This document shows, one piece after another, positions 4,001-22,519 of a stretch of 64,000 nt of DNA (the first letter of the stretch is position 1; every line of letters begins with the position of its first letter). The stretch covers positions 62,001 through 126,000 of the IMG/VR virus record IMGVR_UViG_3300045960_000114. One strand, given 5' to 3'. This stretch comes from a virus. The position numbers were made by a program, and so were the translations under genes. The notes under the pieces are model-generated. The model had not been told where the DNA came from. It made no database searches and worked only from the letters and a program-made list of their open reading frames with translations.

Positions 4001-4855
4001 TTGTCGGACGAAGCGCGCAGAAGCCTAGCGGAAGAGCCTGAGAAGTGGGTTGACCGTATGGCGCGCATCAGGTCGCAGGGCAAGTTCCCCGGGGGTGCCC
4101 ATCGTGCGCCTTCATTCATCGCACTACACGAGGACTATCCGCAGAAGACTGCCCAGGCTGAGCCCGTGCAGGCGGGAATGACTCAGTCCAACCTGAACAA
4201 GCTCCGCGAAGCCATTGGCGCGAAAGCGCCCATACTTCGCGACCCCAAGGCTGAGCACATGGGTGTGTACGTCCACCCAGAGTCGCAGCAGTACATCAAG
4301 GGGTTGGTTGAAAAACTACCGCCCAAGACGCGCAAGACGCTGACACCGAGCTTGCGGCGCATGTTGCGTAAGTATGGCCTGATCTACGGATCCGACGTGA
4401 ATAAGCCGGCAGTAGCCGCGCATGAGATGGGTCATTCGACTGGTTCGAACGTGATGCTGCCCGTGGAGGCAGCCCAGATGAACGCCAGCCCCTTGTTTGG
4501 TGGCCTGCTGGCGAGCGGGATGGCAGCCCACACCTTGCGCAATCCGCCTATTGGATTGGGATCTTCCTTGGCGCGTGTTGGCCTGACTGGCGCGGCAGGT
4601 GCCGGCGCCGGGCTCCTGTTTCATTTACCCACCCTTTTTGAAGAGGGACGTGCCAGCCTTCGCGGCCTTAAAGCCTTGCGTGAGGCGGGTTTCTCTGATA
4701 AAGATGTTAGCGAGGCGCGTGGTGACATGTGGAATGCGTACAAGTCGTATCTTTCGCATGCTACGCTCAGGCCAGCCGCCTACGCAGCTTTAGGCACGGG
4801 TGCCGCGCTTGGCGCCACGGGCTTGAAGGCGCTCCTGAAGAAGTGGCGGAGGTAG
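1040..4855 (+). CDS. SNF2-type helicase + LigD-like phosphoesterase + ATP-dependent DNA ligase + HEXXH domain fusion
   Basis: An unusual 1271-residue multidomain protein. Residues 25-430 form an SF2/SNF2 helicase: Walker A GLGSGKT at 52-58, DEAH at 119-122, GTP at 147-149, and a C-terminal lobe with GSEGLDL and VIGRAIRH near 386-420. Residues about 590-725 resemble the LigD 3'-phosphoesterase domain (HLDVRFGEPGGG, GTIPSGYGAGEV). Residues about 740-1035 look like an ATP-dependent DNA ligase, with KIDG at 767-770 (candidate adenylated Lys767), LRGEAYG at 822-828, EGVIGW at 927-932 and KVKV at 941-944. The C-terminal part has HEMGH at 1128-1132, a zinc-metallopeptidase signature, followed by small-residue hydrophobic segments and a basic end. 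The gene lies between two baseplate genes and overlaps the gp25-like gene by 4 nt. Domain calls are strong for helicase and ligase, moderate for phosphoesterase and peptidase. A virion-carried DNA repair or genome-entry role is inference. Confidence 0.85.
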   Translation: MNMRDLKASLYKRVLTKRAALKPDITLLPHQERVVSKWQGEDQPPGMLVYHGLGSGKTPTSIAVGESMPGIKNVVVPAALRENYRKQLRQFSTDPRKYHVMSYEEALKGKPESSLTVFDEAHRMGREGTAISMLPRRMTGRKLLLTGTPVRNEPSEIVPLLKAIAPDRPIPKTQEAFNQQFIRTQLVHPDILTRLFLGIKPGERQVFTEPEKFKKLVEGRVDYQPSKGEFPGFDEKHIDVDMTPEQSDLYRGVMSGSPMAWKIRLNLPPSKAESARLNSFLSGVRQISNNPSAYDKRLVGDPVDHSPKLQRMVDDVQKGLKNTANFKGLVYSNYLDAGIVPMANRLTKLGIPNAVFTGELNDKLRKKVIEDYNKGDIKVLLVSGAGSEGLDLKGTKMVQVMEPHWNLARTKQVIGRAIRHQSHSHLPPEERFVTVNWYHSKPQQSFLSRWGLLPPDRGVDRYLYSRAVEKQQIINQMLSSLKEVGAQKPQEAAPLTKAAFTIPDPLLDYLASVAGLRKLQTLARKYRAGASAIEQTADLLTPPRELTPVKMEEEKEAGVKAAVVDYAEGLPDPKRFGDPRQILKNKLLEWVVQEHKARRAGRHLDVRFGEPGGGPSLYSWATKKELPKPGERPISLFQQPLHRGTYADFQGTIPSGYGAGEVKQHDRGKISVTEATRDKIKFVTLHKGDPEYFTMIRQTGVPKNPQTARMRRTQGGSWLLINTTPLKAEQVLGGPASQVGMNKLKFTSIPAEKVDKIFDPNFLVQSKIDGASLLYHVMQDKIEAVSYRQSKAGRPIVHTQRMFGLGGAKPKDLPPELSGTILRGEAYGVRDNKAIPPQELGGLLNASALKSLGEQARRKIQMRNMVFDVVRRGKEPVQPGERWKTLEEVSKYLPPNLFHLPETATTPDEAKSLWNRIQSGEHPLTSEGVIGWPKGDGRPVKVKVMPESDVWVKGVFPGEGKYKGTHAGGFEYATAPEGSVVGRVGTGLSDEARRSLAEEPEKWVDRMARIRSQGKFPGGAHRAPSFIALHEDYPQKTAQAEPVQAGMTQSNLNKLREAIGAKAPILRDPKAEHMGVYVHPESQQYIKGLVEKLPPKTRKTLTPSLRRMLRKYGLIYGSDVNKPAVAAHEMGHSTGSNVMLPVEAAQMNASPLFGGLLASGMAAHTLRNPPIGLGSSLARVGLTGAAGAGAGLLFHLPTLFEEGRASLRGLKALREAGFSDKDVSEARGDMWNAYKSYLSHATLRPAAYAALGTGAALGATGLKALLKKWRR

Positions 4856-4858
4856 CCC

Positions 4859-6490
4859 ATGGCCGACATCACCATCGATAGCATTGACAAGGACCAGGCA
4901 TCAGCAGCCGAAGCGTTTCTGGTCGACTGGCTGAAGGTCAACTACCCTTCACTCGATCTGAGCGAAGGGCGCGTCCTGCGCGATATCCTGATACGCCCGG
5001 CGGCCTTGTTTTACGCGCTTAACCAGACCAACCTGCAGGTGATGAAGAACTCGATGTCGGTTGCAGCCATCGAGGGCAACGTCGAGCCTGTTGACGACAC
5101 AATAGTTGACCTGACGGTTTCGAATTTCAAGCTGACCCGGATTCCGGGCGTTGTCTCGACGGGCAAGATTGCCATCGTTCTGAGCACGCTGCGCACGACC
5201 AGCGTGCCGGTGGGAACCGTCTTCACGCTGGGTGAGCTGACATTCGTCACCGAAACATCGTTCGTTGGTGTGACGACTTCTGACGCCGTGCTCGACTCGA
5301 CGACCCAGCGGTTGATCACGCAGCGCACCGACGGCAACTACTCATTCATCATCGATGTGGTTGCTAGTACGGCGGGGTCTCAGTATGCCATCCGGCGGAA
5401 TACCACGTTTGAATCGGTGTCACCGGCCATCCCGAGCATGATCACGTCGTATGCCTCTGAAGACTTCACCACGGGGCAGGCGGAAGAGACCAATCAGGAG
5501 CTGATGGCCAGATTCCAACAGGCTATCTCACCTGCTGTTTACAGCGGTAGAACCCACATTGCTTCCAGGATGCTCGCGGCCAACGAGAACATCCGCATGC
5601 TGAGCATCATCGGCTATGGCGACGCCGAGATGCTTCGTGACCGGCACAACATCTTTGCCGTCAGCCATGGCGGCAAGGCGGACATCTACGTCAGGACGCG
5701 GGATTACCCCCAGACGATCCTGGTGAACAAGACGGCCACGCTCATTGATGCCAACACGAAGACGTTCCAGGTGACGCTCGGACGTGATGATGCGCCCGGT
5801 TTCTACACCGTTGAATCGGTGCTGCCCGCCAATGCGCCGCAGGATCAGGGGACACTTGAGGTAACGAGCGTCACCAAAGGGCTGGACCTGTCGCAGACGA
5901 CCAACGAGTTCGTGCCCGAGATCGCCACGTTGATTGAGGGAGCCTACAGCCGATACCAGACGGCGGTGATCCGTTTCGTGGATCCGACCAACGACGGAAG
6001 CAACATGTCCTACGATGTTTACGTAAACTACATGCCTGGGCTGGCTGACCTTCAGAGCGACTCTATCAACAGGGACAACCGCAATCCGCAGGCAGACTAC
6101 CTGGTACGTGCGCCGATCCCAGCCTACGCGTCGGTATCGATGCTGATACAGTACACGACCTCGGAATTGCCGAATACTGATAGCATCAAGCAGGCTGTGG
6201 CTGACGCCGTGAATGCACTGACTTTCTCGCTGGGCCAGCTACCGGCTTCCATCATCCATGACGCCGTTTACACCGTTTTGGACAAGAGGTACGCCGTCGT
6301 GGTTTCTCCGTTGGACATCTACTGCCGGATCCACAAGCCGGATGGTACAATCGTTGCCATCCGGTCGCCGAATGGAATCTCGGCACCGAGCGAGCCGGAG
6401 AATTGCGTCACATCAAGAACGACGCTGTTCTACCTGACGCCGGCAAGCGTGGACATTACGTTGCAGCGCGTGCAGACGCTGCCAGTGTAG
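4859..6490 (+). CDS. Baseplate J-like protein (gp6-type wedge component)
   Basis: A protein of 543 residues. The N-terminal part (FLVDWLKVNYPSLDLSEGRV and the following helix) and the central motif TTGQAEETNQELMARFQQAI followed by GRTHIASRML are typical of the baseplate J / gp47 / T4 gp6 family. That family forms the wedge ring that connects the tail tube and the fibres. The C-terminal third contains a beta-alpha domain usual for J-like proteins. It starts 3 nt after the helicase-ligase fusion, with weak spacing for its own ribosome site (GCGGAGGTAGCCC), suggesting coupled translation. Together with the gp25-like gene it supports a contractile tail. Confidence 0.85.
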   Translation: MADITIDSIDKDQASAAEAFLVDWLKVNYPSLDLSEGRVLRDILIRPAALFYALNQTNLQVMKNSMSVAAIEGNVEPVDDTIVDLTVSNFKLTRIPGVVSTGKIAIVLSTLRTTSVPVGTVFTLGELTFVTETSFVGVTTSDAVLDSTTQRLITQRTDGNYSFIIDVVASTAGSQYAIRRNTTFESVSPAIPSMITSYASEDFTTGQAEETNQELMARFQQAISPAVYSGRTHIASRMLAANENIRMLSIIGYGDAEMLRDRHNIFAVSHGGKADIYVRTRDYPQTILVNKTATLIDANTKTFQVTLGRDDAPGFYTVESVLPANAPQDQGTLEVTSVTKGLDLSQTTNEFVPEIATLIEGAYSRYQTAVIRFVDPTNDGSNMSYDVYVNYMPGLADLQSDSINRDNRNPQADYLVRAPIPAYASVSMLIQYTTSELPNTDSIKQAVADAVNALTFSLGQLPASIIHDAVYTVLDKRYAVVVSPLDIYCRIHKPDGTIVAIRSPNGISAPSEPENCVTSRTTLFYLTPASVDITLQRVQTLPV

Positions 6491-6504: not shown

Positions 6505-8118
6505 GTGAGCGTAGGCTACCCCGCTTCCGACTATGATCGCGGCTACCAGCTGCTACAGGCGCTGGGCTCGTACTGGACAAACATCTTCCAGGACAACAAC
6601 AAGCTGCGTGAGCACCTGCGCAGTACGGGCCAGATGCAGGGGCAGGTCTACCTCAACACGCTGGAAGTGACGGCCTACATCTCCAGGCTGACGGTTCCCA
6701 TCTTTCACACAGAAAACTGGCACCTGATCACCTTCAAGCGTAGCGATTCACTGAGTCTGGCCAGTATCTACAGACCGGACGACTTGCAGTACGGGCCGCA
6801 AGACGGGTCTAACCCGGAACGAGCAGCTGGCTTCATCCAGACGTACGCCGGAACCGACAATCCTGGTATCGTGGAGCTGGCGCTGCCTGATAGCATGGTG
6901 GATGCCCCGGCAACGCTTCAGAATCTGGTCATCTATCCCAGCAAGACCTGGGTTAACGGAATCGACTACGAGGTCGATAAGGTGGCCAAGCGGATCAAGT
7001 TCCGGGATGACCCATTCACCGACCCGATGGTGCCGCGAAGGGACATCTACGATTCCGTTGGTAACATCGTCGACATGGAGATCGCGCTCTGGGTGTACAG
7101 AGGCCGTTTCGACCTCAAGGACATCTATAGCCGGTTCGGACAGCAGATCGATATCGTGCTCGACTCGAGTGAGGATTACAAGAAGCTGGTCAACGCGATG
7201 TGGGATATGTTTGTGCTCGGACCGGCTGCCAGCAGCATGACTTCATACGTGGCAGCGCTGACCGGCGTACCGCTGGTTGTGGGGCCGACCGAGACGGTTG
7301 AGGTCGTGTCTGCGGACGCTTACTCCCAGTTGATGATCACCAGCACAAAAGTCTACCGCGTGCCTTTTGCCTCCACGATCACCGTGTCCGTGGGCGACAC
7401 GGTAACGGCGGGCCAGCCCATATGCGACGCTTTCAGCATCGAGGAGCTGTCGGACGCCAACCACGATTACAGCTGGCTACCGGCTGTCGGTATTACAAAG
7501 TCGCTCATCTCCGGCCCCTACATGGCTGAGCTTCAGTTCAAGAACACGGACGTGGCGCTCGAGTACCTTGGGCTGGATGGCGACGGTAAGGCGATCGTTC
7601 AGTTTGAAATAGGAGGATTCCCCGGTGACGTGGAGTTCTTCTGGGAGTTCGTGCAAGCGGCTGGAAAGCTGCCGGGTCAGAAGACGCTGGCCGAGTTGCT
7701 GGACAAGCGTACGAATCCGGTAGGGCAGCCTGGTCCACTGAATCTGCCGCTAACAATCAACCCGATGACTTTCATCCTGGATAACCTCTGCAAAAACAAT
7801 CTGTTTGTGATCCGGGTGAAGCCTGCCGCCTTCAACCCCTCGGCGCCGGGGCTGTCACTTTTCTCCAATCTCCGCAAAGTGATACCGCCACACACGACTT
7901 ACATCGTATTCGTTGACATGGAACTGCAAACTGAGGCGGTTGACTTGAGCCAGGTTGGGGACGAGAATGAGCCGGGGGCAGAGGAAGAACTTAGCCTTTT
8001 CTATGGTGCTACTGCTGCCATGGACGAGGCTACAGAGGTAGGCTCAGCTACGCCTGGCATGGCGTCTTACGGCGACGTGTCAGTTTACGCTAGGCCAATC
8101 TCGCTTACCTGTGCGTGA
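6505..8118 (+). CDS. Baseplate or tail structural protein, function unassigned
   Basis: A protein of 537 residues starting at GTG after a TAGGAG site. No enzyme motif is visible. The N-terminus (LLQALGSYWTNIFQDNNKLR) is helical. The rest is mostly beta-rich, with a short stretch near residues 275-315 that resembles a barrel-sandwich segment (STITVSVGDTVTAGQPI). A location directly after the J-like protein is where other myoviruses encode further baseplate or fibre-attachment proteins, so a structural role is likely. The precise part is unknown. Confidence 0.7.
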   Translation: MSVGYPASDYDRGYQLLQALGSYWTNIFQDNNKLREHLRSTGQMQGQVYLNTLEVTAYISRLTVPIFHTENWHLITFKRSDSLSLASIYRPDDLQYGPQDGSNPERAAGFIQTYAGTDNPGIVELALPDSMVDAPATLQNLVIYPSKTWVNGIDYEVDKVAKRIKFRDDPFTDPMVPRRDIYDSVGNIVDMEIALWVYRGRFDLKDIYSRFGQQIDIVLDSSEDYKKLVNAMWDMFVLGPAASSMTSYVAALTGVPLVVGPTETVEVVSADAYSQLMITSTKVYRVPFASTITVSVGDTVTAGQPICDAFSIEELSDANHDYSWLPAVGITKSLISGPYMAELQFKNTDVALEYLGLDGDGKAIVQFEIGGFPGDVEFFWEFVQAAGKLPGQKTLAELLDKRTNPVGQPGPLNLPLTINPMTFILDNLCKNNLFVIRVKPAAFNPSAPGLSLFSNLRKVIPPHTTYIVFVDMELQTEAVDLSQVGDENEPGAEEELSLFYGATAAMDEATEVGSATPGMASYGDVSVYARPISLTCA

Positions 8119-8472: not shown

Positions 8473-9096
8473 ATGCCCACCGCAAAAGCGATAAGGCGGT
8501 TGAAAAATCAGTTGGACTTCTATCCCATGGATACCAACGCCAAGGGATTGGTTCGGATCTTCTCGTTCGACCCTAAGACGGGCAAGATCAAGTCCATAAT
8601 CGAGAAGCAGAACCTGATCCTTTACAGCGGCGCCGACGTCATGGCGAAGTGTCTGTCGGGCAACAGCAACTACGCCATCAGCTCGATGTTCATGGAGTTC
8701 AAGAACCTTCCCAGCCCATCCGATTCGATCACACCGCCAGCGTTCGACCGGACCGGTGGCATCGGTTACTACAGCGGGCTGTCATCGTCGCTCGACACGG
8801 ATTACGTGCGCGTTCCGCTGGTGTCGATGCCTGATTTCGATACCAGCGACGCGCTCTACTACAACTTCAACCAGGCCACGTACTTTGCCATCAGCGAGGG
8901 TTCCACCGGCGTCCACGGGAAGACCTTCGGCCCCGGCACGAACTCCGCTGTGTACGGAGCGGCACTCGTGGCGACGCCGGAGCCCGCCCAGCCGGCGCAG
9001 GACGTGGTCTTCTCCCGTGTGTACTCCGGTGTGGGCAAGATCCTGAAAGAAGCGGGCTTCGAGATCGGGATCACCTGGACGATAAGGATGAACTAA
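8473..9096 (+). CDS. Predicted virion structural protein
   Basis: A protein of 207 residues, beta-rich and Ser/Gly/Tyr-rich. It has the sequence style of phage tail or fibre-associated proteins that begin with a short basic segment and then a repeated-strand body (IIEKQNLILYSGADVMAKCL). A good site (AAGGATGGAACC) precedes ATG. It is flanked by tail genes on the same strand. Function is inferred from composition and position only. Confidence 0.6.
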   Translation: MPTAKAIRRLKNQLDFYPMDTNAKGLVRIFSFDPKTGKIKSIIEKQNLILYSGADVMAKCLSGNSNYAISSMFMEFKNLPSPSDSITPPAFDRTGGIGYYSGLSSSLDTDYVRVPLVSMPDFDTSDALYYNFNQATYFAISEGSTGVHGKTFGPGTNSAVYGAALVATPEPAQPAQDVVFSRVYSGVGKILKEAGFEIGITWTIRMN

Positions 9097-9346: not shown

Positions 9347-11206
9347 GTGTCTTCAATCACCCCGTGGCTCAGCAGAGTGAATCCTGTCGTCGATGGCGAA
9401 CAGGTCAAGGCTGACGTCACTAACAGATACCCGGCGCAGATCGGGCAGCGGACTGATAACCTCAAGCAGCGGTTGGACGATCTGCAGGCCAGCAAGGCGC
9501 TGTTCCTGAGAGACGTGGCGCTGGACCCGGCGGTTCTGGTGGGCTACGCCGTTTACTGGGACGCGTTGACCCTGAGCTACAGACCAGCGATCGCCAAGGT
9601 GGAGTACAGCGCAACGCTGGGTGGCTATGTGGTGGCTAATTCCAGCTACGTGGTTGGCATCTGCATTGCCAAGAGCACAGCGACTGTTGGCGATCTCGTA
9701 CAGATCGGCTTCGTCGGCGATTTCGACTTCACGAATGGCATTGGTTCGCCCGGCACGACGCCCGCAGAAGCCGGCCCGTATTACCTCTCCGGAACGCACG
9801 CGGGAATGTACACGCGGCAGAAACCGCCGGTTGGGGTGTACGTGGCATACCTGCGCGGCGACGGAAGTGCGCAGGTCAACCCCACTCCGCGTGACATTCT
9901 GGAAAGCCACATCCACTACAAGTACAACCTCTTCTCCAACCCGGCTGGCACGCTTGCAGCCACGTTGCCTGGGCAGCCTTACCAGTTCGCCTCGGTCAAC
10001 AACGCGCTGCCCGGCTGGTTGCCCGCGAGCGATGTAATTTTCGGTGGTGCTGCACCGGCAGGTGCAGTGTTTGGGTACAATCTGTCGCAGCACCTGGAAC
10101 TGGAGAGAGTTTGGCCTCCGCAGCCGTACGATCTGGTCTACATCGAGAAGAATGGCTACCCGGTCAACAGCGGGCTGTTCCTGGCCGATGCGAATGGCCT
10201 GTGGTGGTTCGAGAACTGCTATGGGAAGGCGCCGTGGGCCACCCAGGCGAACAACGTGCAGTCGTCCTCATCCTCCTCGTCCTCTTCGTCTTCGTCTTCG
10301 TCCAGTTTCACGTGCGAAGAGCTGTCCCTGCTGGAAAGTGAAGGATACCTACGCAGCGCGCCGGACGCCTCCGTGATGGCCATCTTCTTTACCAAGATGA
10401 TCTTCAAGTCGTCGCTGCTCGTGACGTCGCTTCAGCCGGTAGCCGGCTCGCCGATCGAGATCGTTGGCTGTGATGGGCTGCCGGCGACGCATGGCGACCT
10501 GAAGGTGGGGTTAAACCTGGCGATGACCACCCAGGATGGCGATTACTCGCCTTATGGGTTGAAGGGCGTCACCGGAACCACATTCGGCAAGGGGCCGATT
10601 CTTACGGGTGTGAAGCCGGGAAGTAATGTGAGCATCGTGCCGGTGCCTAATCGCGGTTTCCTGGGCACTGATGGGGTGTATCGCGGCGAGTTTACCATAA
10701 GTGCCAACCTCACGGAAAACCTCCTGGGAGGCACACCGGAACTCGTTGCATTGGATGGTGTGCGCCAGCAGTCGACTGATGGCATCTTCTACCTGATCTT
10801 CCCGAAGAGCCTGACCACGTCCATGCAGATGCGCGTGGGTATCCCAACCGGTGGCGTGCCGGAGGATGCCTATCTGCGGCTCTGGTTCTGGCTGCTGTCC
10901 AAGCGCAACAGTCTGCCGCTGCCTGATCTGTACTGCTCGTACCGGAAACTGGCTACACCCGGTTCTGGATGCGGAAAGGGGTCGCTACCAGACGCTGACA
11001 TCGGTTTAAGTCCTCTGGCTCCAGGTGTTTGCGGGAACATCAATTCTGGCGAGTACATCGAGATCGAGTCGGATCCGATTCCGGTGGTCAATGGCGACAT
11101 GGTCTTCTTCACGCTGCAGCGAGTTGACAGTGGTACAACCCCGGACGCTTACGACGGCGATGTCGGCGTGCTGCGGTTCGGGTACGGAATCAGCTTGGTG
11201 AGCTAA
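9347..11206 (+). CDS. Tail fibre or baseplate-associated protein with a 15-serine linker
   Basis: A protein of 619 residues starting at GTG. The N-terminal half (about 1-300) is beta-rich, with a His-containing motif HIHYKYNLF near 188-196. An uninterrupted run of 15 serines at nt 10262-10306, using mixed Ser codons, separates it from a second globular half (about 322-619) that has several Gly/Pro turns and Cys near the end. The modular layout suggests two domains joined by a flexible linker, as in tail spike or adaptor proteins. The exact function is unknown. Confidence 0.7.
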   Translation: MSSITPWLSRVNPVVDGEQVKADVTNRYPAQIGQRTDNLKQRLDDLQASKALFLRDVALDPAVLVGYAVYWDALTLSYRPAIAKVEYSATLGGYVVANSSYVVGICIAKSTATVGDLVQIGFVGDFDFTNGIGSPGTTPAEAGPYYLSGTHAGMYTRQKPPVGVYVAYLRGDGSAQVNPTPRDILESHIHYKYNLFSNPAGTLAATLPGQPYQFASVNNALPGWLPASDVIFGGAAPAGAVFGYNLSQHLELERVWPPQPYDLVYIEKNGYPVNSGLFLADANGLWWFENCYGKAPWATQANNVQSSSSSSSSSSSSSSSFTCEELSLLESEGYLRSAPDASVMAIFFTKMIFKSSLLVTSLQPVAGSPIEIVGCDGLPATHGDLKVGLNLAMTTQDGDYSPYGLKGVTGTTFGKGPILTGVKPGSNVSIVPVPNRGFLGTDGVYRGEFTISANLTENLLGGTPELVALDGVRQQSTDGIFYLIFPKSLTTSMQMRVGIPTGGVPEDAYLRLWFWLLSKRNSLPLPDLYCSYRKLATPGSGCGKGSLPDADIGLSPLAPGVCGNINSGEYIEIESDPIPVVNGDMVFFTLQRVDSGTTPDAYDGDVGVLRFGYGISLVS

Positions 11207-11216
11207 GAGGTAGGGC

Positions 11217-12152
11217 ATGACGACAGCTGCGCAGGGTATCTGGGATATCGAGTGGCTTAACGGCAACTCGCAGCGCAAGTATCCCCTGAGGGATGACGCC
11301 ACCAAGACAGATACGACCGAGGCTATGGTCATCCCAGATGACTTCATGGTCGACCTGCTTTGGCCAGTCCAGTCAGGTATTGGGGCTGACCCTACACTGT
11401 TTCACGTCTACGCCATCGACATCTTTGGTACCGGCGTGAAGATCACGCTGGGCTACAACGGTTCGCCCATTGGGGAGACCCTGATAGACACGGAGACGTT
11501 CACGCCAAACCGCGCTTATGTTATCAGCGGACTGAATGACTTTGAGGACAGCATCGGCAAGGTGGTCATCGGCACGCTGAGCAGCATACAAACGTATGCC
11601 GGTCATTTTGAGTTTGATTCAGTAGGTGCTGGTCTGCAGCCGACGGTGATCAGACCGAACCTTCGCGGTGTCAGTGCCATCTTCCTTCAGAATGGGCAGG
11701 ATGTAAGCGACGCCATACAGGGTGACGTGGTATTCGAGGCGGGCAGTAATTTTCAGCTGAACTTCCAACGGCGCAGCGGCACTAAAGCTGACCCGCATGT
11801 CATCGTCCTGAGTGCCATTGACGGAACAAACCTGAATGCTGATTGCCAGTGCGATCCGCAGGAGACGCGTCAGCCGATCTTGACCATTGATGGCATACCG
11901 GGCGACGTCAACAACAACTTCAACCTGCTTGGCTCGACCTGCGTAGAGATGACCCCGATAACCAACGGGTTGAAGATAGAAAATCCATGTTCGGAACCCT
12001 GCTGTGGCTGCCAGGAACTGGAAGTGGTACAACAGGCTACGGAGACGTTGACAGGACAAGTCCACACGCTGATCAACCTGGCGGCAAAGCTGGAAGCAGC
12101 AATTGGGACGTTGGAGTCAAACCTGGCCACCGCAGGCGCGATAACGAGATGA
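11217..12152 (+). CDS. Fibre-array paralogue 1 (YP-motif family)
   Basis: A protein of 311 residues, the first of five consecutive genes sharing an N-terminal module: an aromatic residue, an Asn-containing turn, Arg, then Tyr-Pro (here EWLNGNSQRKYPLRDDA). A conserved aspartate/valine strand follows (PDDFMVDL). A second shared element near residues 220-240 reads ILTIDGIPGDVNNNFNLL. A Cys-rich patch (PCSEPCCGCQEL) precedes a C-terminal helix that may trimerise. Probably a tail fibre or receptor-binding accessory; this is inferred from modularity and location. Confidence 0.7.
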   Translation: MTTAAQGIWDIEWLNGNSQRKYPLRDDATKTDTTEAMVIPDDFMVDLLWPVQSGIGADPTLFHVYAIDIFGTGVKITLGYNGSPIGETLIDTETFTPNRAYVISGLNDFEDSIGKVVIGTLSSIQTYAGHFEFDSVGAGLQPTVIRPNLRGVSAIFLQNGQDVSDAIQGDVVFEAGSNFQLNFQRRSGTKADPHVIVLSAIDGTNLNADCQCDPQETRQPILTIDGIPGDVNNNFNLLGSTCVEMTPITNGLKIENPCSEPCCGCQELEVVQQATETLTGQVHTLINLAAKLEAAIGTLESNLATAGAITR

Positions 12153-12153
12153 C

Positions 12154-13869
12154 ATGGCTTCAGCATTCGAGTGGTTGGAAAGCACCACGCGTATCTCCTA
12201 CCCGTTCGAGGACAACCTCGATGGCGGGTTGAAGTCAATTCTCGTCGACGCATATGTGGCTTGCTCGCGTACGCTGGATGATTGCCGAGTGCGGTTGTCG
12301 CTATTCGATTCCATTGCCCGTCGCGTCGTCCTGACGTATGCCAATGAGACAACCCTGTTTGATCTGCAGGCGCCACTGAATTGCACGTACTCAGAGTACG
12401 ATTTTGGCACAATCTACCGTGTTCATGAATGGTGGAGTCTGGCCGATACGGACGATGATGTGGTAATCAGATTCACATCAATCAAAGACGCGCTGACAGG
12501 GCTGGAGCCGATCAAACCCGACAACGCCTGGTTGCTGCGGTCCTTGATCGACAAGCGCGCGTCTGCAGTTCGTCGGCTGGGGATGAAACTGCCGAACCTG
12601 CCGTGTTGTACTGGCGGCGGTATCGAGGAGGGCTACTTCACCATCAGGGCTGGCTACAACCTGAGTATGGCTGTCTCCAGTACCACGTCAGGTGTCCGCG
12701 ATAGGACTGTCATTGCGATAGATGCCGTACCTGGTGCTGGGGCTGGTCAATATCCTGGCTGCGGGCTCGCTGAGCCGGGATTGAGAAGCATTGGTAACCA
12801 GGAACCTGACGAATTCGGTAATGTCAGTCTGGCTGGAGACAAGTGCCTGTGGATCGAGCGCCCGTTGAATGCGCCCGGGTATACACCCCCACCGGGCAGC
12901 AAGGTCGATTACGAGGCAACCGTCGAAGAGAACACCATCAAGTTGCATGACGACTGTAAAGCGTGTTGTGACTGCAGTGATTACGGCGCCGCCTACCAGG
13001 CATTGCGTAATACGTGGTTGCAGTTGAAGAACGCCTACAAGTCGATTGACATCACCAGGAAGAAATACAACAGTCTGGTCGCCAAGACTAACCTGGATTT
13101 CTGTAACAATGATTTCATCGCCATGATCCGTTGCATGGAACGGCCTGACTATATGGCGTCTGTTGTCGTCGTGATTGCCAACAAGTCAAAAAATCCGCTG
13201 ACTGGTGTGAGGATATCCATGAGTGCCAGTCCGGATTACGGATCTTATCTTCCCAACTCTGGACTGGTTGAGGTTTCTCAGCCTGGCAACGAACCCGTGA
13301 AATTCAAACAGGACATGAGCCCGATAAAGGAAATGACGTACCCCATACAGTCGGATAATACTGTTGATCCGCTTCCAGATATACCTGCGGCAGGGATAAC
13401 AGGTATGAGCATATCCCTCCCCACCATTCCTGCTGGGGGGACGCTGCGCTTCTACTTCGATATGCGATTCATGGTCGGTGAAGAGATAGTTGTTCAGTCC
13501 TTCAATGGAACCATGATACACGCTCCAACCCAGCCTGATGGTTCGTACAATTTGGTTACTGGAGACGCTACCTTTGAAAAGGTACAGCCTGGTGACAGGC
13601 TTCTCGTGGCCGGTGTACTGTCATTTCCCATCGGAGAAATCGACGGATACGTCTGGGATCCTGGCCTGTCAGCGTTTGTGCCAGACTACAGTATAATAAT
13701 GACTGACACGTGGCCTCTTATACCTATCTTAGCTCCAGTACCTATGCAGGTACTGCGCGACAACCGCATCGGCCTGTCATCCACGCTGACAGCCTCAATA
13801 TCCACGTCACTGGGTAATAAAGCCGTGTCAGACTCGGTCAACTTCGAAGCGCCGAAAGGCAAGGTGTAG
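12154..13869 (+). CDS. Fibre-array paralogue 2 (YP-motif family)
   Basis: A protein of 571 residues beginning 1 nt after paralogue 1. The N-terminal module is recognisable (FEWLESTTRISYPFEDNL, then LVDAYV). A central Cys-rich patch (DDCKACCDCSDYG, about 266-278) corresponds to the PCSEPCCGC patch of paralogue 1. The C-terminal ~240 residues add a beta-sandwich-like domain absent from paralogue 1, with segments such as ASVVVVIANKSKNPLTGVRI. This looks like domain accretion on a shared anchoring module. No enzymatic motif. Confidence 0.7.
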   Translation: MASAFEWLESTTRISYPFEDNLDGGLKSILVDAYVACSRTLDDCRVRLSLFDSIARRVVLTYANETTLFDLQAPLNCTYSEYDFGTIYRVHEWWSLADTDDDVVIRFTSIKDALTGLEPIKPDNAWLLRSLIDKRASAVRRLGMKLPNLPCCTGGGIEEGYFTIRAGYNLSMAVSSTTSGVRDRTVIAIDAVPGAGAGQYPGCGLAEPGLRSIGNQEPDEFGNVSLAGDKCLWIERPLNAPGYTPPPGSKVDYEATVEENTIKLHDDCKACCDCSDYGAAYQALRNTWLQLKNAYKSIDITRKKYNSLVAKTNLDFCNNDFIAMIRCMERPDYMASVVVVIANKSKNPLTGVRISMSASPDYGSYLPNSGLVEVSQPGNEPVKFKQDMSPIKEMTYPIQSDNTVDPLPDIPAAGITGMSISLPTIPAGGTLRFYFDMRFMVGEEIVVQSFNGTMIHAPTQPDGSYNLVTGDATFEKVQPGDRLLVAGVLSFPIGEIDGYVWDPGLSAFVPDYSIIMTDTWPLIPILAPVPMQVLRDNRIGLSSTLTASISTSLGNKAVSDSVNFEAPKGKV

Positions 13870-13870
13870 C

Positions 13871-15532
13871 ATGGCGCTTATCACGCGTGACTTCCTGAAT
13901 GCCAACGAGGACCGGGCTTATCCGATTCACGAAGCAGCCACACGTTGTGGCATAAATGGCAACGTGATTCCAAACGATCTGATCGTCGATGCCAACATCT
14001 GGATACCGAAGTCGATTGGTACCAACGTGTACATCTCATCGATCGGCAACAGCGCCAAAATCCTGTCAGTGACTCTGCTGGCCGTAGATTACAACCCGAT
14101 TTGCGGCGAACCTTCTTCGTCGTCATCGGCACAGCCTACATGCAACCCGACGCCTGTCATAAAGCCGGTTGGTGTGGTCAGTCTGGTAAAACCGATCACT
14201 CCGTACAAGAATTATCCGATCCAGCCGATGAAGGATGGCGTAGCTGGGTGGATATCCTTCGGCTCAGGAGTCACAAAGGCGGATACCTACTTTGTAGCCA
14301 TTGACGATCCGGCGAATGGGCTTCTTGTCAATCGCGCGGTCAGGGCATACTTGGTACCACCGGTGACATCACTCGGTAAGGCAAACAGTGATCGTGAGTT
14401 GAAAGGGATTGTCGGGCTTACGGGTGCTGTTGGCCGCGTGGTCGTGGCCAAGAGCACGCGCATGATCAACGGAGTTACGCGGGACGTCATCACGATCGGA
14501 TTAGATACTACGCGCGGCTATGTGCAGACCATGCAGGACTTTGCCGGTGATTGTGGCAAACGGCCAAGCGCCAAAACCTGTGACAAGACGCCTATCTTGT
14601 CGATCGAAGACGTGGCACCTGACGTCAACGGAAACATTGACCTGCTGTTTGAAGGCGACGTTATTGTGGGTGGTGTGCAAGACGGGTTGGTACTGGACTT
14701 CCCGTATGGAACTGCTGACGTCTGTCCGCCGAAAGATTGGGTCATCTACCAGATGATCCCGGGTGACTGTTTCCCGGAGATAACGTCGTCGTCTGCCCCC
14801 GAGCCGCCGCCAGAATCGAGCTCAGGTCAACCCATTCCATCGTCATCCGCGCCGTCCAGCATCGTACCGCCTGGCCCGCCGAGCTACGTGCTGGACTTTG
14901 AGCATAATACGCTATTCCCATTGGAGGTGAGGGCTGGCGAGATAGAGATCCAGGATCTGGGGACAGACACGAACCGGGCTGTCGCTACGTCTTTGGCGGG
15001 TGGAAATGAAGCTGTCGACCTTTTTTACGATCCGCCAGACGTCGCCGATACGTACACACTCGGTTCGCTGATAAAACCGCGCGATTCAGTTTCCAGGGAA
15101 GGACACGTCAGCTTCGGTTTCTACAATACATCGGACTTCTGGTTCTTTGCCGTGCAGCTGTCCCATGTAGTCTACCCGAACGGGTTGTTTTACATCGGGC
15201 GCCGGCTTCCAAGGGTTGGATATGGCGGCGGGTATGCCGGTCCTGGTCCAATCGGGTCGCAGTATTTCTTCCAGCTCGATTCGATTTACGCCTTCAGCCC
15301 GAGCTCCCCGCTCGTCGTGACGGATTACACCGTGTCGCTGTTTGTGCATAAGTCAGGCAGTAACACGCTGATTGACTGGTCTGTGAGCTGGTTGTCCAAC
15401 GTCGTTGCGCAGACTTACGTTGTCGCACGTAACAGTTCACAGTGGGATCCGACAAAGTACGATAGGGCGCGGATTGGACTTGGTTCCGTCACCACGGTCT
15501 GCGAGTTCGATTACTTCAGGATCAACGCCTAA
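13871..15532 (+). CDS. Fibre-array paralogue 3 with Ser/Pro linkers and a C-terminal lectin-like domain
   Basis: A protein of 553 residues. The N-terminal module reads RDFLNANEDRAYPIHEAA, followed by NDLIVDANIW. The second shared element is ILSIEDVAPDVNGNIDLL (about 242-259). Two Ser-rich linkers are visible (PSSSSSAQP near 82-90, and a Ser/Pro segment near 305-340). The last ~200 residues form an independent beta-rich domain (VLDFEHNTLFPLEV to the end), with a concanavalin-like style that could bind glycans. That last point is speculation from composition. It overlaps the next gene by 1 nt (TAATG). Confidence 0.68.
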   Translation: MALITRDFLNANEDRAYPIHEAATRCGINGNVIPNDLIVDANIWIPKSIGTNVYISSIGNSAKILSVTLLAVDYNPICGEPSSSSSAQPTCNPTPVIKPVGVVSLVKPITPYKNYPIQPMKDGVAGWISFGSGVTKADTYFVAIDDPANGLLVNRAVRAYLVPPVTSLGKANSDRELKGIVGLTGAVGRVVVAKSTRMINGVTRDVITIGLDTTRGYVQTMQDFAGDCGKRPSAKTCDKTPILSIEDVAPDVNGNIDLLFEGDVIVGGVQDGLVLDFPYGTADVCPPKDWVIYQMIPGDCFPEITSSSAPEPPPESSSGQPIPSSSAPSSIVPPGPPSYVLDFEHNTLFPLEVRAGEIEIQDLGTDTNRAVATSLAGGNEAVDLFYDPPDVADTYTLGSLIKPRDSVSREGHVSFGFYNTSDFWFFAVQLSHVVYPNGLFYIGRRLPRVGYGGGYAGPGPIGSQYFFQLDSIYAFSPSSPLVVTDYTVSLFVHKSGSNTLIDWSVSWLSNVVAQTYVVARNSSQWDPTKYDRARIGLGSVTTVCEFDYFRINA

Positions 15533-16293
15533 TGGAACAACTCTTCCCGCCATGGCGCAACTACACGCGCCCATTGAAGTACCCCTTCGCCGACAAGTGC
15601 AACCTGACGGCAACCAATGGCGTCGTGTTGTCGGCTGATCTGTTTGATGACGCGCGCATCTACCCTGTGGGCGGTGAAGTTGGGATGTACATTGGGCGTG
15701 TCACCCTGGATGGAACCACGGTAACAATCGAAGTGTACGGTCCGACAAAGGGTAGCCTGGCGACTGCTACATACGACTCGCTGAGTGGCCCAGAGGTACT
15801 GAAGTTTGTTGATGCCAGCGGTAACCCTGCTGGCCTGATGGTATCAGACACGGACAGGTTGCAGACACTGGCAGCCAGTATGCCAGTTGGTGAGACATTG
15901 TTTCTGCAAGACGCTACAGAATTCGTCGCATCGGTGGTGGTGCCGATCCCAGATTACGGTGTCACAGCAGTAGAGGTGAGCACAGAAAGATTGAGTGGGG
16001 ACGTGTACCTGGTTGGTACTGACGGCATCGTACTGAGCGTAGAGGACGGATACATCCGCGTGGATGCTGTCGGCAACCCTTACGCATTGCTGAAGTTGTG
16101 TGAGCAGCAAGCCATACCGATTGCCCCGATTTGCGGGCTGAAGACGCTCAACAAAATACCGCCTGATGGTGCTGGCGACTTCAAGATTACCATCGGTGCT
16201 AACGTGGCAACCGATAACATCCTGCGAATCCTGCAGGAGTCTGGTATCTTTAACGTACAGACTTCCGTGTCGGGGCAAGGATGTCATGGCTGA
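15532..16293 (+). CDS. Fibre-array paralogue 4 (YP-motif family)
   Basis: A protein of 253 residues with a divergent version of the shared N-terminus (WRNYTRPLKYPFADKCN, then LSADLFDDARIYP). The second element is also present near residues 203-220 (GLKTLNKIPPDGAGDFKI). It lacks the Ser linker and the extra domains of its neighbours, so it may be close to the minimal unit. It overlaps paralogue 3 by 1 nt and paralogue 5 by 8 nt. Confidence 0.65.
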   Translation: MEQLFPPWRNYTRPLKYPFADKCNLTATNGVVLSADLFDDARIYPVGGEVGMYIGRVTLDGTTVTIEVYGPTKGSLATATYDSLSGPEVLKFVDASGNPAGLMVSDTDRLQTLAASMPVGETLFLQDATEFVASVVVPIPDYGVTAVEVSTERLSGDVYLVGTDGIVLSVEDGYIRVDAVGNPYALLKLCEQQAIPIAPICGLKTLNKIPPDGAGDFKITIGANVATDNILRILQESGIFNVQTSVSGQGCHG

Positions 16294-17188
16294 ACGAGAA
16301 TTTTACAACGGGAATGAGCGTATCGCGTACCCGCTGGTGGCGCGCGACCTGCCTATCACTGACCCGTTCGATGCGCTGGTGGACGCCGGCTTCATGGTTG
16401 GCCCATCGGTGGATTACGACCCTACCACGAACAATGTCTACCTGTTCCAGATAACCGTGTCCGGCTTGTCGCTCGTATTCGACTTCAGGTCTGACGCGCC
16501 AGACTTTGTTGGTTACCGTTGGCTGTTCACAGTGCCCGCTGGTACAGCATATGGATGCACGATCAGCGCGAATGCCGAGCTGTCGCTGGTTGAGGACGAA
16601 AACATGGGCTACGGGTTTATCACCATTGGTCGTATGGATAGGTTGATCGCCCTTGGCGACGGTACATATACGATGACACCCGTGTGGCATGTGGAACCGT
16701 CGCTGGTCCAGTGTCTGCGCGGATCAAGGGTGGAGCGGGTCATCCTGGCTAACGATGCGCGGCCTTGCCCAGTTCAGTGCAACCCGACAAGTCCATCGTC
16801 CAGCTCATCATCCTCCAGTTCAGCTTCGGCGGCACAGGAGACTTACCTGGTAGCAGGCGGCGCACTGACGGGCGATGTGAAGTTCAAGGGTGGGTTCAAC
16901 TGCGACATCTCATTGCTGGTCAGCTCAAATGCCGTGGAGATTGGCGCCAACCGCGATTCAGGCGAAGGCAGGACCTGCTACGACTGGATCATCGACCAGA
17001 ATGGCATGCACAAAGACCCGGACAGCGGTGTACCCTACTGCGAGGCATGCTCCGCGTTCATCTCAACGATCAACGGAAGAAACTTCAACGCCACTGGTGG
17101 AAAGGTTAGGCTGGCTGTTCCTGCAGGTGCGCTTGTGACGCCTGACAAGGAAAACCACCAGATCACCATAAGGTTGAAACCTTACTGA
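16286..17188 (+). CDS. Fibre-array paralogue 5 with poly-serine linker
   Basis: A protein of 300 residues. The chosen ATG at 16286 has an AAGGA site and places the conserved module at the very N-terminus (REFYNGNERIAYPLVARD, then DALVDAGFMV). A longer frame opens upstream but only inside the preceding gene. A serine run (nine consecutive, near residues 173-181) separates the N-terminal domain from a C-terminal domain that carries the second shared element (STINGRNFNATGGKVRL). It ends in TGATG overlap with the next gene. Confidence 0.68.
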   Translation: MAEREFYNGNERIAYPLVARDLPITDPFDALVDAGFMVGPSVDYDPTTNNVYLFQITVSGLSLVFDFRSDAPDFVGYRWLFTVPAGTAYGCTISANAELSLVEDENMGYGFITIGRMDRLIALGDGTYTMTPVWHVEPSLVQCLRGSRVERVILANDARPCPVQCNPTSPSSSSSSSSSASAAQETYLVAGGALTGDVKFKGGFNCDISLLVSSNAVEIGANRDSGEGRTCYDWIIDQNGMHKDPDSGVPYCEACSAFISTINGRNFNATGGKVRLAVPAGALVTPDKENHQITIRLKPY

Positions 17189-18105
17189 TGAGCAACGCCT
17201 TCCCCCCACACGACGATTGCCCGGTCCCACAGATCGAGGCCATCAGTGACCTGGATTACAGCTGCCTGGTCTATGATCCGCCATTCCCGTGCCTTGGCAT
17301 GCCACTGCCGCCGCCACCATTCAGTTTCGACTTCGGATGCTACCCGCTGACTGTTCATGTGGATTGGGACCCGGACCCAGCAGACAGGCCGGAATTCAGT
17401 GCTAAGGTCGTGTATCTGAACAAGGACCAGACGGGATACTGCCGCCCGCAGATCCGCTTCAGGGTACGCATGGGTGCTGCCGGCTGTGGTAACATTTCGG
17501 TGGTGGTCCTGGCGGATCACGACATCGAGTTGTCGGGCTGCCAGAACATCGACGGCGTCGACGTGTGCACGGACGACAGGGTGCTCACGATCGCACAAAC
17601 TGACCCGCTCGAGAACGACGTGTGGATCGTCCAGAGTGGTGCCTGGATACGTTATGAGACCGCGCTGGCATGTAACTCTGTCGTCGTGCGGTTTGGAAAT
17701 AAGCACGCAAAAGAGACGTGGGAGATTGGGAACACGACTGAGCCCGAGCACGGTACAGACATAATCCAGTGGATACCTACCGATATAGCCAGCATGACCT
17801 GCAGATTGCGGCTGACAGATCCGGCAATCGCACTGGAAAACACGCAGACTGTTGACGGTGTTGTTACAGAGGATGGTGACCTTGTCGTCGTGGACACTAC
17901 AACATCCGGTTTACCGAGTTCCGCTGACGGTATCTGGCTCGTAGTGACAGCCGGAGCTTGGGTACAGCTGTTTGCGGTTGATCCTGCGACTGCGCCAGTG
18001 GGCGTTCCGGTGTTACCGGCTGGCGCGATTGTCACGGTGTGGGATGGTTGGTCGGCGCCGTGGCTGTACGTGGTTGCAAGACTAACCCTGGATGACGGGC
18101 CATAA
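17188..18105 (+). CDS. Tail fibre-like protein with two repeats of a prophage fibre motif
   Basis: A protein of 305 residues. Two tandem segments (about 100-155 and 200-262) share a pattern common in prophage tail fibres: a leading strand ending ELSG or ALEN, then a QxxDGV turn, D-R-V-L or D-L-V-V-V, an Asn/Ser-Gly/Asp-W-x-V turn, and GAW. Examples are CQNIDGVDVCTDDRVL with VQSGAWIRY, and TQTVDGVVTEDGDLVVV with TAGAWVQL. The Pro-rich Cys-containing N-terminus (about 1-50) is different. It follows the paralogue array by 1-nt overlap and is probably part of the same distal tail structure. Confidence 0.7.
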   Translation: MSNAFPPHDDCPVPQIEAISDLDYSCLVYDPPFPCLGMPLPPPPFSFDFGCYPLTVHVDWDPDPADRPEFSAKVVYLNKDQTGYCRPQIRFRVRMGAAGCGNISVVVLADHDIELSGCQNIDGVDVCTDDRVLTIAQTDPLENDVWIVQSGAWIRYETALACNSVVVRFGNKHAKETWEIGNTTEPEHGTDIIQWIPTDIASMTCRLRLTDPAIALENTQTVDGVVTEDGDLVVVDTTTSGLPSSADGIWLVVTAGAWVQLFAVDPATAPVGVPVLPAGAIVTVWDGWSAPWLYVVARLTLDDGP

Positions 18106-20573: not shown

Positions 20574-20789
20574 ATGGAAGAACTGGTGGACACCATGGCA
20601 GAACTGGATGTCATCAAGCAGCTGGCTGAGATCATGGGCTCGCTCAACGACGACGGCAGGCGGCGCGCGTTGTGGTATCTGGCGGATATCTACGGTCTGT
20701 CTGGGCGTCCACAGGTGCAACCACCAACCCAGGCAAAACATTCTACGAGCAGCCCCATACCGATCGGACAGGTTAGGACCGCGCCGTAA
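20574..20789 (+). CDS. Small hypothetical protein
   Basis: A protein of 71 residues. The first ~48 residues are helical and acidic (MEELVDTMAELDVIKQLAEI). The remainder is a Pro/Ser/Thr-rich tail. It has a strong AAGGGGG site and a TAATG overlap with the glycosyltransferase gene, suggesting coupled translation. The N-terminal helix pattern (QLAEIM-SLNDDGRRRALWYL) resembles that of the protein two positions upstream (DRLSRDEQLSVLVSLIDRY), so the two may be distantly related. Confidence 0.5.
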   Translation: MEELVDTMAELDVIKQLAEIMGSLNDDGRRRALWYLADIYGLSGRPQVQPPTQAKHSTSSPIPIGQVRTAP

Positions 20790-22519
20790 TGCCTGAACAG
20801 CTGATGCTGACCAATCGGCAGTGTCCTGGCGACTTTATCGTCATGACGGCTGCCATCCGTGATCTGGCCCTGTGCTACCCAGGCCGGTACAAAATACACG
20901 TCAATGTCGACCAGAAAGATGTGCTGGTAGCAAATCCTCACATCGCACCGATGGCTACGGTCATGCGCCCGAAGACTGTGGAAGCGGGTTACGACAAGGG
21001 CAGGTATTCGGTCAACAATTCCAACCAGAACCGTGCCCATTTCCTATGGGGGTTCATCAGCGAGCTGAACCTTAAGTTGAAGCTGGCAATCAGGCTGACC
21101 GAGTTCAGGCCGGCACTGTACCTGACCGACGACGAGCGCAATCGCAGGCCGATCGAAGAGCCGTACTGGGTCTTTGTCAGCGGCGGGAAGATGGACTACA
21201 CAGCCAAGTGGTGGGATCCAGCGCGTTGGCAGCAGGTGATCAACCAGATGGCTCCGCGCGTCAAGATGGTGCAGGTGGGTGGCACGGGCCGTGGTTCTCA
21301 CATCCACAAGCCGATGGACAACGTAATAGACCTGGTCGGCAAGACCAGCTTCCGCCAGCTCATCAACTTGATCTACCACTCCGAGGGGGTCATGTGCATC
21401 GTGACCTGCCTCATGCACATAGCCGCCGCCTTCAACAAGCCCTGTGTGGTGATCTCGGGCGGGCGTGAGCCTTGGTGGTGGGAGGCGTATAATACAGAGA
21501 ATCGGCTGGTCAACATGCGGTTGGGCGACCCAACGTGGAATCCCCCTGCGAACGACAACTTCATCCCACATCAATACCTGCACACGCTTGGCCAGCTCCC
21601 CTGCTGCCAGAACTTCGGCTGCTGGAAGAGCAAGATCCTGCCGCCGGAAGTGCCCCCGCCGCCTAAGCACACCAAGTGCGCCATCCCTACCAAGCTGGAC
21701 AGCGGGCTGTGGCTGCCGGAATGTCTGAATCGCATCACGGTCGATCAGGTCGTTCAGGCTGCCGAGTGGTACTACAACAAGGGCATCCTCAAGTGGGGGA
21801 AGCCGTCCTCGATCTTCGTGCCGCCGGTTGAGCTGCTACAGCCTGTCACGCTGCCTGAGCCGCCACAGCCCGTGGCACCCCCGGTTACCATACAGTTCAA
21901 GGAGCCGCCTAAGGAGCCCGTTTTCCTGGACGGAACCTGGACCGTGTGCGGGATCACCTCGCTGCAGTCGCCCACTCGCCGTAAGTTCGCGCTGGATCTG
22001 AAGGCTTGGTGTGTCAACCGTAAGGTGAACTACCTGGTCATCCAGATGGGTGCCGAAAAGGCCATGACCAACGAGATGGCGGCATTCGGCATCCCTTATC
22101 AGGAGTGCAGTGGCACCTGGGTGTCCGCCATGATGCAGGCGATGGTATTTGCCCAGTCGCAGCCGAGTGAGCGGGTCATCCTCATCGAGGATCCGCTACA
22201 TCTGAACGGGAAGCTCGACGATGTCGTGCCCAACGAGCCGTTCGTGGCTGGTACCATCTCATGGCGCCCGCTGACCCAGCCGCACTTGGACCGCCTGGCG
22301 CCCATCCTGGATCCGGAAAGGTTGGACAAGCACCCACTGGCGCCTGGCCGGTTCAAGGCGTATTATCTTAACCGAGGGTTTGTCATGGGCACCAAGGACA
22401 TACTCTGCAAGACATTACAGAATGTCCACCAGCGGGAGGAGTACGCGGACATCCTGATGTGTGAGTACCCGCGCCAGCATGGCGCCAAGGTGCTCGACAT
22501 AAGCGAGCAGTTCATTTGA
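20789..22519 (+). CDS. Glycosyltransferase family 9-like (heptosyltransferase-type) protein with a C-terminal extension
   Basis: A protein of 576 residues. The N-terminal ~300 residues follow a GT-B heptosyltransferase-like pattern: a first strand and loop (CPGDFIVMTAAIRDLALCYP), later YWVFVSGGK, and a C-terminal donor-site region (DLVGKTSFRQLINLIYHSEG, then CLMHIAAAFNKPCVVISGGRE). A Pro-rich hinge follows (about 345-390). The last ~190 residues form a second alpha/beta domain (TVCGITSLQSPTRRKFALDL to the end) that resembles nucleotide-sugar-type folds but has no motif I can name. In the family, GT-9 enzymes transfer heptose from ADP-heptose to LPS. It may decorate virion proteins or host surface sugars. 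It is consistent with the heptose-phosphate adenylyltransferase-like gene at 35.4 kb. Confidence 0.7.
   Translation: MPEQLMLTNRQCPGDFIVMTAAIRDLALCYPGRYKIHVNVDQKDVLVANPHIAPMATVMRPKTVEAGYDKGRYSVNNSNQNRAHFLWGFISELNLKLKLAIRLTEFRPALYLTDDERNRRPIEEPYWVFVSGGKMDYTAKWWDPARWQQVINQMAPRVKMVQVGGTGRGSHIHKPMDNVIDLVGKTSFRQLINLIYHSEGVMCIVTCLMHIAAAFNKPCVVISGGREPWWWEAYNTENRLVNMRLGDPTWNPPANDNFIPHQYLHTLGQLPCCQNFGCWKSKILPPEVPPPPKHTKCAIPTKLDSGLWLPECLNRITVDQVVQAAEWYYNKGILKWGKPSSIFVPPVELLQPVTLPEPPQPVAPPVTIQFKEPPKEPVFLDGTWTVCGITSLQSPTRRKFALDLKAWCVNRKVNYLVIQMGAEKAMTNEMAAFGIPYQECSGTWVSAMMQAMVFAQSQPSERVILIEDPLHLNGKLDDVVPNEPFVAGTISWRPLTQPHLDRLAPILDPERLDKHPLAPGRFKAYYLNRGFVMGTKDILCKTLQNVHQREEYADILMCEYPRQHGAKVLDISEQFI

What the first reader, a model, noticed from the sequence alone, without database searches (positions are those of the whole stretch)
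11217..17188. Tandem array of five paralogous fibre-type genes with domain shuffling
Five consecutive genes share an N-terminal module (aromatic-x-N-x-x-R-x-YP, then a D-x-x-V-D strand) and a second element of the form I-x-G/D-x-x-x-D-x-N/G-x-N/D. They differ in linkers, Cys-rich patches and C-terminal domains (253 to 571 residues). This suggests duplication followed by domain exchange, giving a set of alternative or stacked receptor-binding parts on one attachment module.
Basis: partly seen in the sequence, partly recalled or inferred. Interest (0 to 1): 0.75.

Follow-up and report, generated by a model that had tools for sequence, protein, structure and literature searches.

The report
Five-part paralogous tail-adhesion gene array
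A large uncultured phage, and more than 70 distinct relatives found here, carries five side-by-side sister genes beside its tail baseplate genes; the five have kept the same order and the same shared core since before these phages diverged, and probably build one multi-part host-attachment structure, in which mainly the third gene carries a changeable sugar-binding-like tip.

Summary
The array is real. Pattern and profile scans recovered the same five genes, always in the order A-B-C-D-E, in 76 distinct arrays, all on uncultured viral contigs. They lie in a conserved J-X-Y-pre-A-B-C-D-E-F tail locus. No relative was found in 50,697 phage records, the genome collection, Pfam, PHROGs or PDB. In a core tree the five positions separate into families (one sequence misplaced), and identities of A, C-core, D and E are tightly correlated between phages (r 0.93-0.96). 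This argues against shuffling between positions or alternative, swappable genes. Only the tail of C (0 to about 900 aa) is clearly modular: ConA/lectin-like in the window's C model, or absent, with an FGE-sulfatase insert in one phage and an unrelated tail in others. Best reading: a fixed-composition, baseplate-proximal adsorption complex with C as main receptor-binding tip. Assembly and receptor binding are inferred; predicted structures are of moderate quality and B's fold was not predicted.

The parts
4859..6490 (+). J: baseplate J-like protein, anchors the locus as a tail/baseplate region
   Evidence: Pfam PF04865 E 1.3e-6; homologue found in 117 frames of the related loci, 73 of them directly followed by X
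6505..8118 (+). X: conserved protein directly after J
   Evidence: X profile hit E 4e-98; present upstream of 59 of 60 testable arrays; homologues in Salmonella phage Arash gp14 (annotated structural protein) and Vibrio phage D181
8473..9096 (+). Y: conserved 207-aa protein
   Evidence: Y profile E 1e-42; 57 of 60 arrays
9347..11206 (+). pre: 619-aa protein with poly-Ser linker, immediately before the array
   Evidence: profile E 8e-237; 60 of 60 arrays
11217..12152 (+). A: core + PCCGC motif + C-terminal coiled coil (311 aa)
   Evidence: predicted helix 265-309; hydrophobic at 11 of 12 heptad a/d positions
12154..13869 (+). B: core (most diverged copy) + CCxC motif + variable C-terminal region (571 aa)
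   Evidence: A-B profile match E 1.5e-19; tail clusters
13871..15532 (+). C: core (about 1-260) + Ser/Pro-rich linker + ConA/lectin-like beta-sandwich tail (about 337-553)
   Evidence: Foldseek PDB hits, best E 3e-5 and 43 below 1e-3, to GH43 lectin-like modules, legume lectins, CBM66 and the evolved Dit CBM of phage J-1; tail length 0-897 aa across phages
15532..16293 (+). D: core with almost no extension (253 aa)
   Evidence: own-genome profile E 7e-83
16286..17188 (+). E: core with poly-Ser insertion (300 aa; start ATG 16286)
17188..18105 (+). F: next gene, Pro/Cys-rich N terminus; collagen-like or beta-repeat versions in relatives
   Evidence: PHROG virion-structural and tail-fibre families, best 3e-16; downstream proteins in relatives

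Best explanation
A-E are five ancient paralogues of one 220-280-residue core, produced by tandem duplication before this phage clade radiated and kept ever since as five non-interchangeable parts of one virion structure. From their place between baseplate J/X and the collagen-like gene F, they most likely form a baseplate-proximal adsorption (fibre) complex. Proposed working: the shared core is the mounting and assembly unit, probably in trimers and each paralogue at its own slot; A (and perhaps B) are held together by CCxC motifs and a coiled-coil stalk; D and E are core-only connecting parts; C projects a variable lectin-like tail that touches cell-surface sugar. Shown: full-core homology, fixed order and copy number, correlated divergence, variable C tail. 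Inferred: trimers, the slot model, assembly at the baseplate, sugar binding.
For: Full-core homology with clean controls. Order ABCDE in 158 loci, 76 distinct complete arrays; every shorter pattern is a locus cut at its end, and the three odd patterns (L132, L141, L143) were frame or profile mis-assignments. Each position a separate family in the core tree (B 91, C 100, D 100, E 25 of 26 at 87, A 26 plus one E at 82). Segment identities correlate between phages: A, C-core, D, E 0.93-0.96, B-core 0.89-0.93. Short gene spacing (medians about -1 to 8 bases). Location after J and X. C tail lectin-like in the window's model, slower-evolving core and faster tail: at A identity 0.55-0.70 the C core is 0.56 and the C tail 0.34. 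A's coiled coil.
Against: No structure or proteomics places any of the five in the virion. AlphaFold models are moderate (mean pLDDT 63.8 and 59.9) and A has no significant Foldseek match in PDB or BFVD, so the core fold is unassigned and trimerisation is not shown. B's link to C and D is weak when compared directly. In about a fifth of arrays unrelated genes or long gaps sit between members, mostly at A|B, so tight translational coupling is not essential.
Confidence: 0.6

Rival explanations
1. Five independent receptor-binding fibres, each for a different host receptor, mounted together as in the branched tailspike complexes of Ackermannviridae.
For: Tandem genes with related N-terminal parts beside the baseplate; C clearly has a lectin-like tail, B has a variable tail.
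Against: A, D and E have no clear variable receptor domain: A and D keep near-constant length (297-335 and 244-347 aa) and conservation along their whole length. No gain or loss of members, whereas Ackermannviridae carry up to four TSPs and can swap them (PMC11414711, PMC8432352). No gp10-like XD match by sequence or fold.
Confidence: 0.2
2. Peripheral baseplate parts rather than fibres: a diverged functional counterpart of the T4 gp9/gp10/gp11/gp12 group, with receptor binding done elsewhere (F, pre or other fibres) and the C tail only an accessory domain.
For: Strong conservation of A and D; position straight after J and X; C tail absent in some arrays such as L054, L104, L107, L143.
Against: The C tail is faster evolving and modular, as expected for a receptor-binding domain; no gp9/gp10/gp11 match in PDB by sequence or fold.
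Confidence: 0.15
3. Recent duplication with ongoing domain exchange between the five genes.
For: Five related genes in tandem with different tails; C tails are of several unrelated types.
Against: Positions separate into families in the tree and segment identities correlate; no case of a domain moving between positions was seen.
Confidence: 0.05

Closest known systems
Ackermannviridae (CBA120, S117) branched tailspike complex TSP1-4
   Same: Several receptor-binding-type genes in one cluster; conserved N-terminal parts that assemble the proteins into one baseplate-attached complex; variable C-terminal receptor domains (PMC8825819, PMC11414711).
   Different: Up to four members, only TSP2 and TSP4 carry the gp10-like XD domains; here all five share the same core, copy number and order never vary in the arrays seen, only C (perhaps B) has a variable tail, and no XD-like match was found.
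T4 peripheral baseplate and short-fibre proteins gp9, gp10, gp11, gp12
   Same: A group of trimeric baseplate-periphery and fibre proteins with shared building blocks, each with a fixed place (gp10 binds gp11 and gp12 through XD2/XD3, PMC8825819; the tandem-gene comparison is from memory).
   Different: No sequence or fold match of A, C, D or E to any of them; five obligate paralogues with one whole-length core.
Phage fibre elements of the 'I/V-N-G-x-x-P-D-x-x-G-N-V' type
   Same: The end of each core carries such an element (e.g. TINGISPDCNGNINL in L035 C).
   Different: No Pfam or PHROG fibre family reached significance for A-E; resemblance is recalled from memory only.
Salmonella phage Arash and Vibrio phage D181 (named phages with a J-X block)
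   Same: Distant J homologue (22%, E 3e-6 and 2e-7) followed by an X homologue.
   Different: No A-E homologue near it nor, for the D profile, in the whole records; the array belongs to the uncultured clade.

Membership tests
Ackermannviridae-type branched tailspike complex | T4 gp10-like XD2/XD3 modules on the branching members | tested here: not met
   No PDB profile hits to gp10 or TSP chains for A, C, D, E; Foldseek of the A model none, best E 0.5. The model is only moderate, so a very remote relation is not excluded.
Ackermannviridae-type branched tailspike complex | Each member has its own variable receptor-binding domain | tested here: not met
   Only C (and partly B) has a variable tail; A, D and E are core with small fixed or no extensions
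Tail-locus (baseplate-adjacent) adsorption proteins | Encoded in a conserved block beside baseplate genes | tested here: met
   Baseplate_J in the window; X-Y-pre order upstream of 56 of 60 distinct arrays; J-X adjacency
Tail-locus (baseplate-adjacent) adsorption proteins | Present in the virion and needed for adsorption | not testable with these tools
   Uncultured virus; no proteomics
Carbohydrate-binding (ConA-like) receptor domain on C | ConA-like beta-sandwich fold of the C-terminal domain | tested here: met
   43 PDB matches at E below 1e-3, most of them lectin or CBM-like sandwiches, from a model of pLDDT about 70-80 in the strands of that region with weak loops
Carbohydrate-binding (ConA-like) receptor domain on C | Binds a glycan | not testable with these tools
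   Needs binding assays
One paralogous family A-E | Homologous core in all five | tested here: met
   hhalign A-B/C/D/E 98.6-99.2% with neighbour-family controls negative; each position its own family
Known Pfam or PHROG families | Significant match of A-E | tested here: not met
   No match below 0.05 for the window proteins; best member match 0.028 among 26 D proteins; none for A2 members

The most novel reading that the evidence does not exclude
The five paralogues are the obligate, non-equivalent subunits of one hetero-oligomeric phage attachment structure built on a new fold: one ancestral trimeric unit duplicated four times and fixed into five slots, with receptor specificity concentrated in the tail of a single subunit (C).
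Probability: 0.3. Interest if true: 0.7.

Novelty: new variant of a known kind. Interest (0 to 1): 0.52.

Why it matters
It defines a previously unlabelled, widespread hallmark locus of a clade of roughly 200-kb uncultured phages: five paralogous tail-locus proteins with invariant order. It gives an annotation handle for proteins that today have no Pfam or PHROG label, points to the tail of gene C as the likely host-range determinant in these phages, and offers a clean case for how a fibre complex grows by tandem duplication and then freezes into fixed parts, in contrast to phages that swap receptor-binding genes.

Tried and rejected
Pfam and PHROG scans of A-E: nothing. tblastn against phage records with A, C, a relative's E fragment, a relative's pre and A, and L141 C: no significant match. 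First viral-contig scans with single window proteins found no relatives because the window is diverged; the degenerate motif pattern opened the family. Two genome-contig scans: candidates but no confirmed relative, so no host or prophage clue. Considered that the shared motif was chance: rejected. Considered gene loss or rearrangement (patterns CDE, BCDE, DE, ABC, ABDCE, ABCDA): all are truncated loci or mis-assignments. Considered hypervariable diversification by a retroelement because of the FGE-sulfatase domain in L053: a crude motif scan found no reverse transcriptase in the parts of this genome held or in the L053 and L139 stretches (weak negative). Fold searches of A (PDB and BFVD): no significant match. 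The box holds no model coordinates, so a direct A-versus-C superposition could not be made; only strand order could be compared.

Full report
Observation. The window is bases 62001-126000 of a 185,265-base virus record. Five + strand genes lie head to tail at 11217-17188: A 311, B 571, C 553, D 253 and E 300 residues. E most likely starts at 16286, overlapping D by 8 bases. By BLAST inside the window the N-terminal similarity is significant for A/C and A/E, marginal for A/D and not visible for B. No Pfam or PHROG family matches any of the five.

Relatives. Single-protein scans of the viral collection found no relatives. A degenerate pattern for F-x-N-x-N-E-x-R-x-Y-P gave 57 loci, most of which contain the same kind of tandem array with recognisable orthologues of A, C, D and E; the gene between A and C is the orthologue of B. 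Alignment-based scans with A and D then gave 80 and 69 loci. Profiles of the five families, run over all frames, give the order A-B-C-D-E in 158 loci; all shorter patterns are loci cut at an end, and three odd patterns are mis-assigned frames or labels. There are 76 distinct complete arrays (68 at 90% identity, 56 at 70%). No relative was found in named phage records, PDB sequences or bacterial and archaeal genome contigs. Many contigs carrying the array are 190-235 kb long.

One core, not two motifs. Profile-profile comparison shows that the five families are homologous over about 220-280 columns: A-B E 1.5e-19 over 261 columns, A-C 7e-16, A-D 2e-16, A-E 7e-19, C-D 3e-13, C-E 6e-10 (137 columns), D-E 2e-9; comparisons with the neighbouring families pre, X and Y never fall below E 0.05. 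B is the most diverged copy: direct B-C and B-D comparisons are weak, and in most relatives its N terminus keeps only the YP and D-strand part, while in the divergent arrays L054, L141 and L143 it still has a recognisable fuller motif.

No shuffling between positions. In a tree of 130 core sequences from 26 diverse phages, C and D are clades with support 100, B 91, E 25 of 26 at 87, and A forms one side of a split with a single misplaced E (82). Pairwise identities of A, C-core, D and E correlate at 0.93-0.96 between phages, and B-core at 0.89-0.93. The duplications therefore predate the divergence of these phages and each position has since been inherited mostly vertically.

What varies. A and D are conserved along their length. 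The tail of C ranges from 0 to 897 residues and evolves faster than its core. BLAST clusters it into several groups. Profile comparison joins the window's group to the main group (95.3%) and singleton L171 to it (94.9%), L211 and L082/L128 more weakly; the L014 group and L139 are unrelated to it. In the window's C the predicted tail is a ConA-like sandwich matching lectins and carbohydrate-binding modules, including the evolved Dit module of phage J-1. In L053 an FGE-sulfatase domain (E 1.4e-15) and long poly-Ser linkers are inserted before a related tail. The shortest arrays have a bare C core (L054, 222 aa), which suggests that the tails were added to an ancestral core-only protein. E is mostly about 300 aa but reaches about 500 in some phages, so its variation is not nil.

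Structure. The A model (13 sequences, mean pLDDT 63.8) has a confident beta-rich region at about 20-140, a weak second half, and a 45-residue helix at the C terminus with hydrophobic residues at 11 of 12 heptad a/d positions, preceded by an invariant PCCGC motif. The C model (mean pLDDT 59.9) shows a similar strand order in its first 160 residues. Neither a direct superposition nor a B model was possible. The A model has no significant match in PDB or BFVD.

Neighbourhood. Upstream are baseplate J (4859-6490), X (6505-8118), Y (8473-9096) and pre (9347-11206); the X-Y-pre order precedes 56 of 60 testable arrays. Downstream, F has virion-structural and tail-fibre PHROG matches and collagen-like versions in relatives. 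Two named phages, Salmonella phage Arash and Vibrio phage D181, have distant J and X homologues but no array, so the array is specific to this clade as far as seen. In a minority of arrays other genes sit between members, mostly at the A|B junction: HNH-type endonucleases in L070, collagen-like genes in L171 and L183.

Mechanism. The best-supported reading is a fixed-composition adsorption complex near the baseplate: the shared core is the assembly unit, five paralogues hold five places, A (and perhaps B) carry Cys-motif and coiled-coil stalks, and C carries the receptor-contacting tail. The order, copy number, homology, correlated divergence and variable C tail are shown; the assembly, trimers and receptor binding are inferred. 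It works like the branched receptor-binding complexes of Ackermannviridae (PMC8825819, PMC11414711) or the T4 gp9-gp12 group, but it fails the tested defining features of the former (gp10-like XD modules, a receptor domain on every member) and shows no detectable relation to the latter.

Noticed in passing
window 1040-4855 (+): A 1271-aa fusion of SNF2-type helicase, LigD 3'-phosphoesterase-like and ATP-dependent DNA ligase parts sits inside the tail operon, between a baseplate-wedge-like gene (570-1043) and baseplate J.
   Followed up: no
window 48817-51753 (+): DNA polymerase A fused to an N-terminal uracil-DNA glycosylase-superfamily domain and a 3'-5' exonuclease domain.
   Followed up: no
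L053:4524-8204: A C-gene protein of 1227 aa carries an FGE-sulfatase domain (the fold type seen in retroelement-diversified proteins) and very long poly-Ser linkers before its terminal sandwich domain; no reverse transcriptase motif seen in the stretch held.
   Followed up: partly
L070:10940-11419 and L070:16005-16580: Two HNH-type (probably homing) endonuclease genes inserted at the A|B and D|E junctions of one array.
   Followed up: no
L131:2918-6246, L199:1694-5697, L171:1668-6300, L183:4404-6284: Large unrelated genes (some collagen-like, one glycosyltransferase-like and one radical-SAM-like by eye) inserted at the A|B junction, which seems an insertion hotspot.
   Followed up: no
L005:11903-13027 and L005:13037-14161 (same virus, outside the window): Two tandem 374-aa ORFs with RCC1-like repeats by eye.
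   Followed up: no
window 20789-22519 (+): Protein with a glycosyltransferase family 9 match (E 5e-12) just downstream of the tail locus.
   Followed up: no
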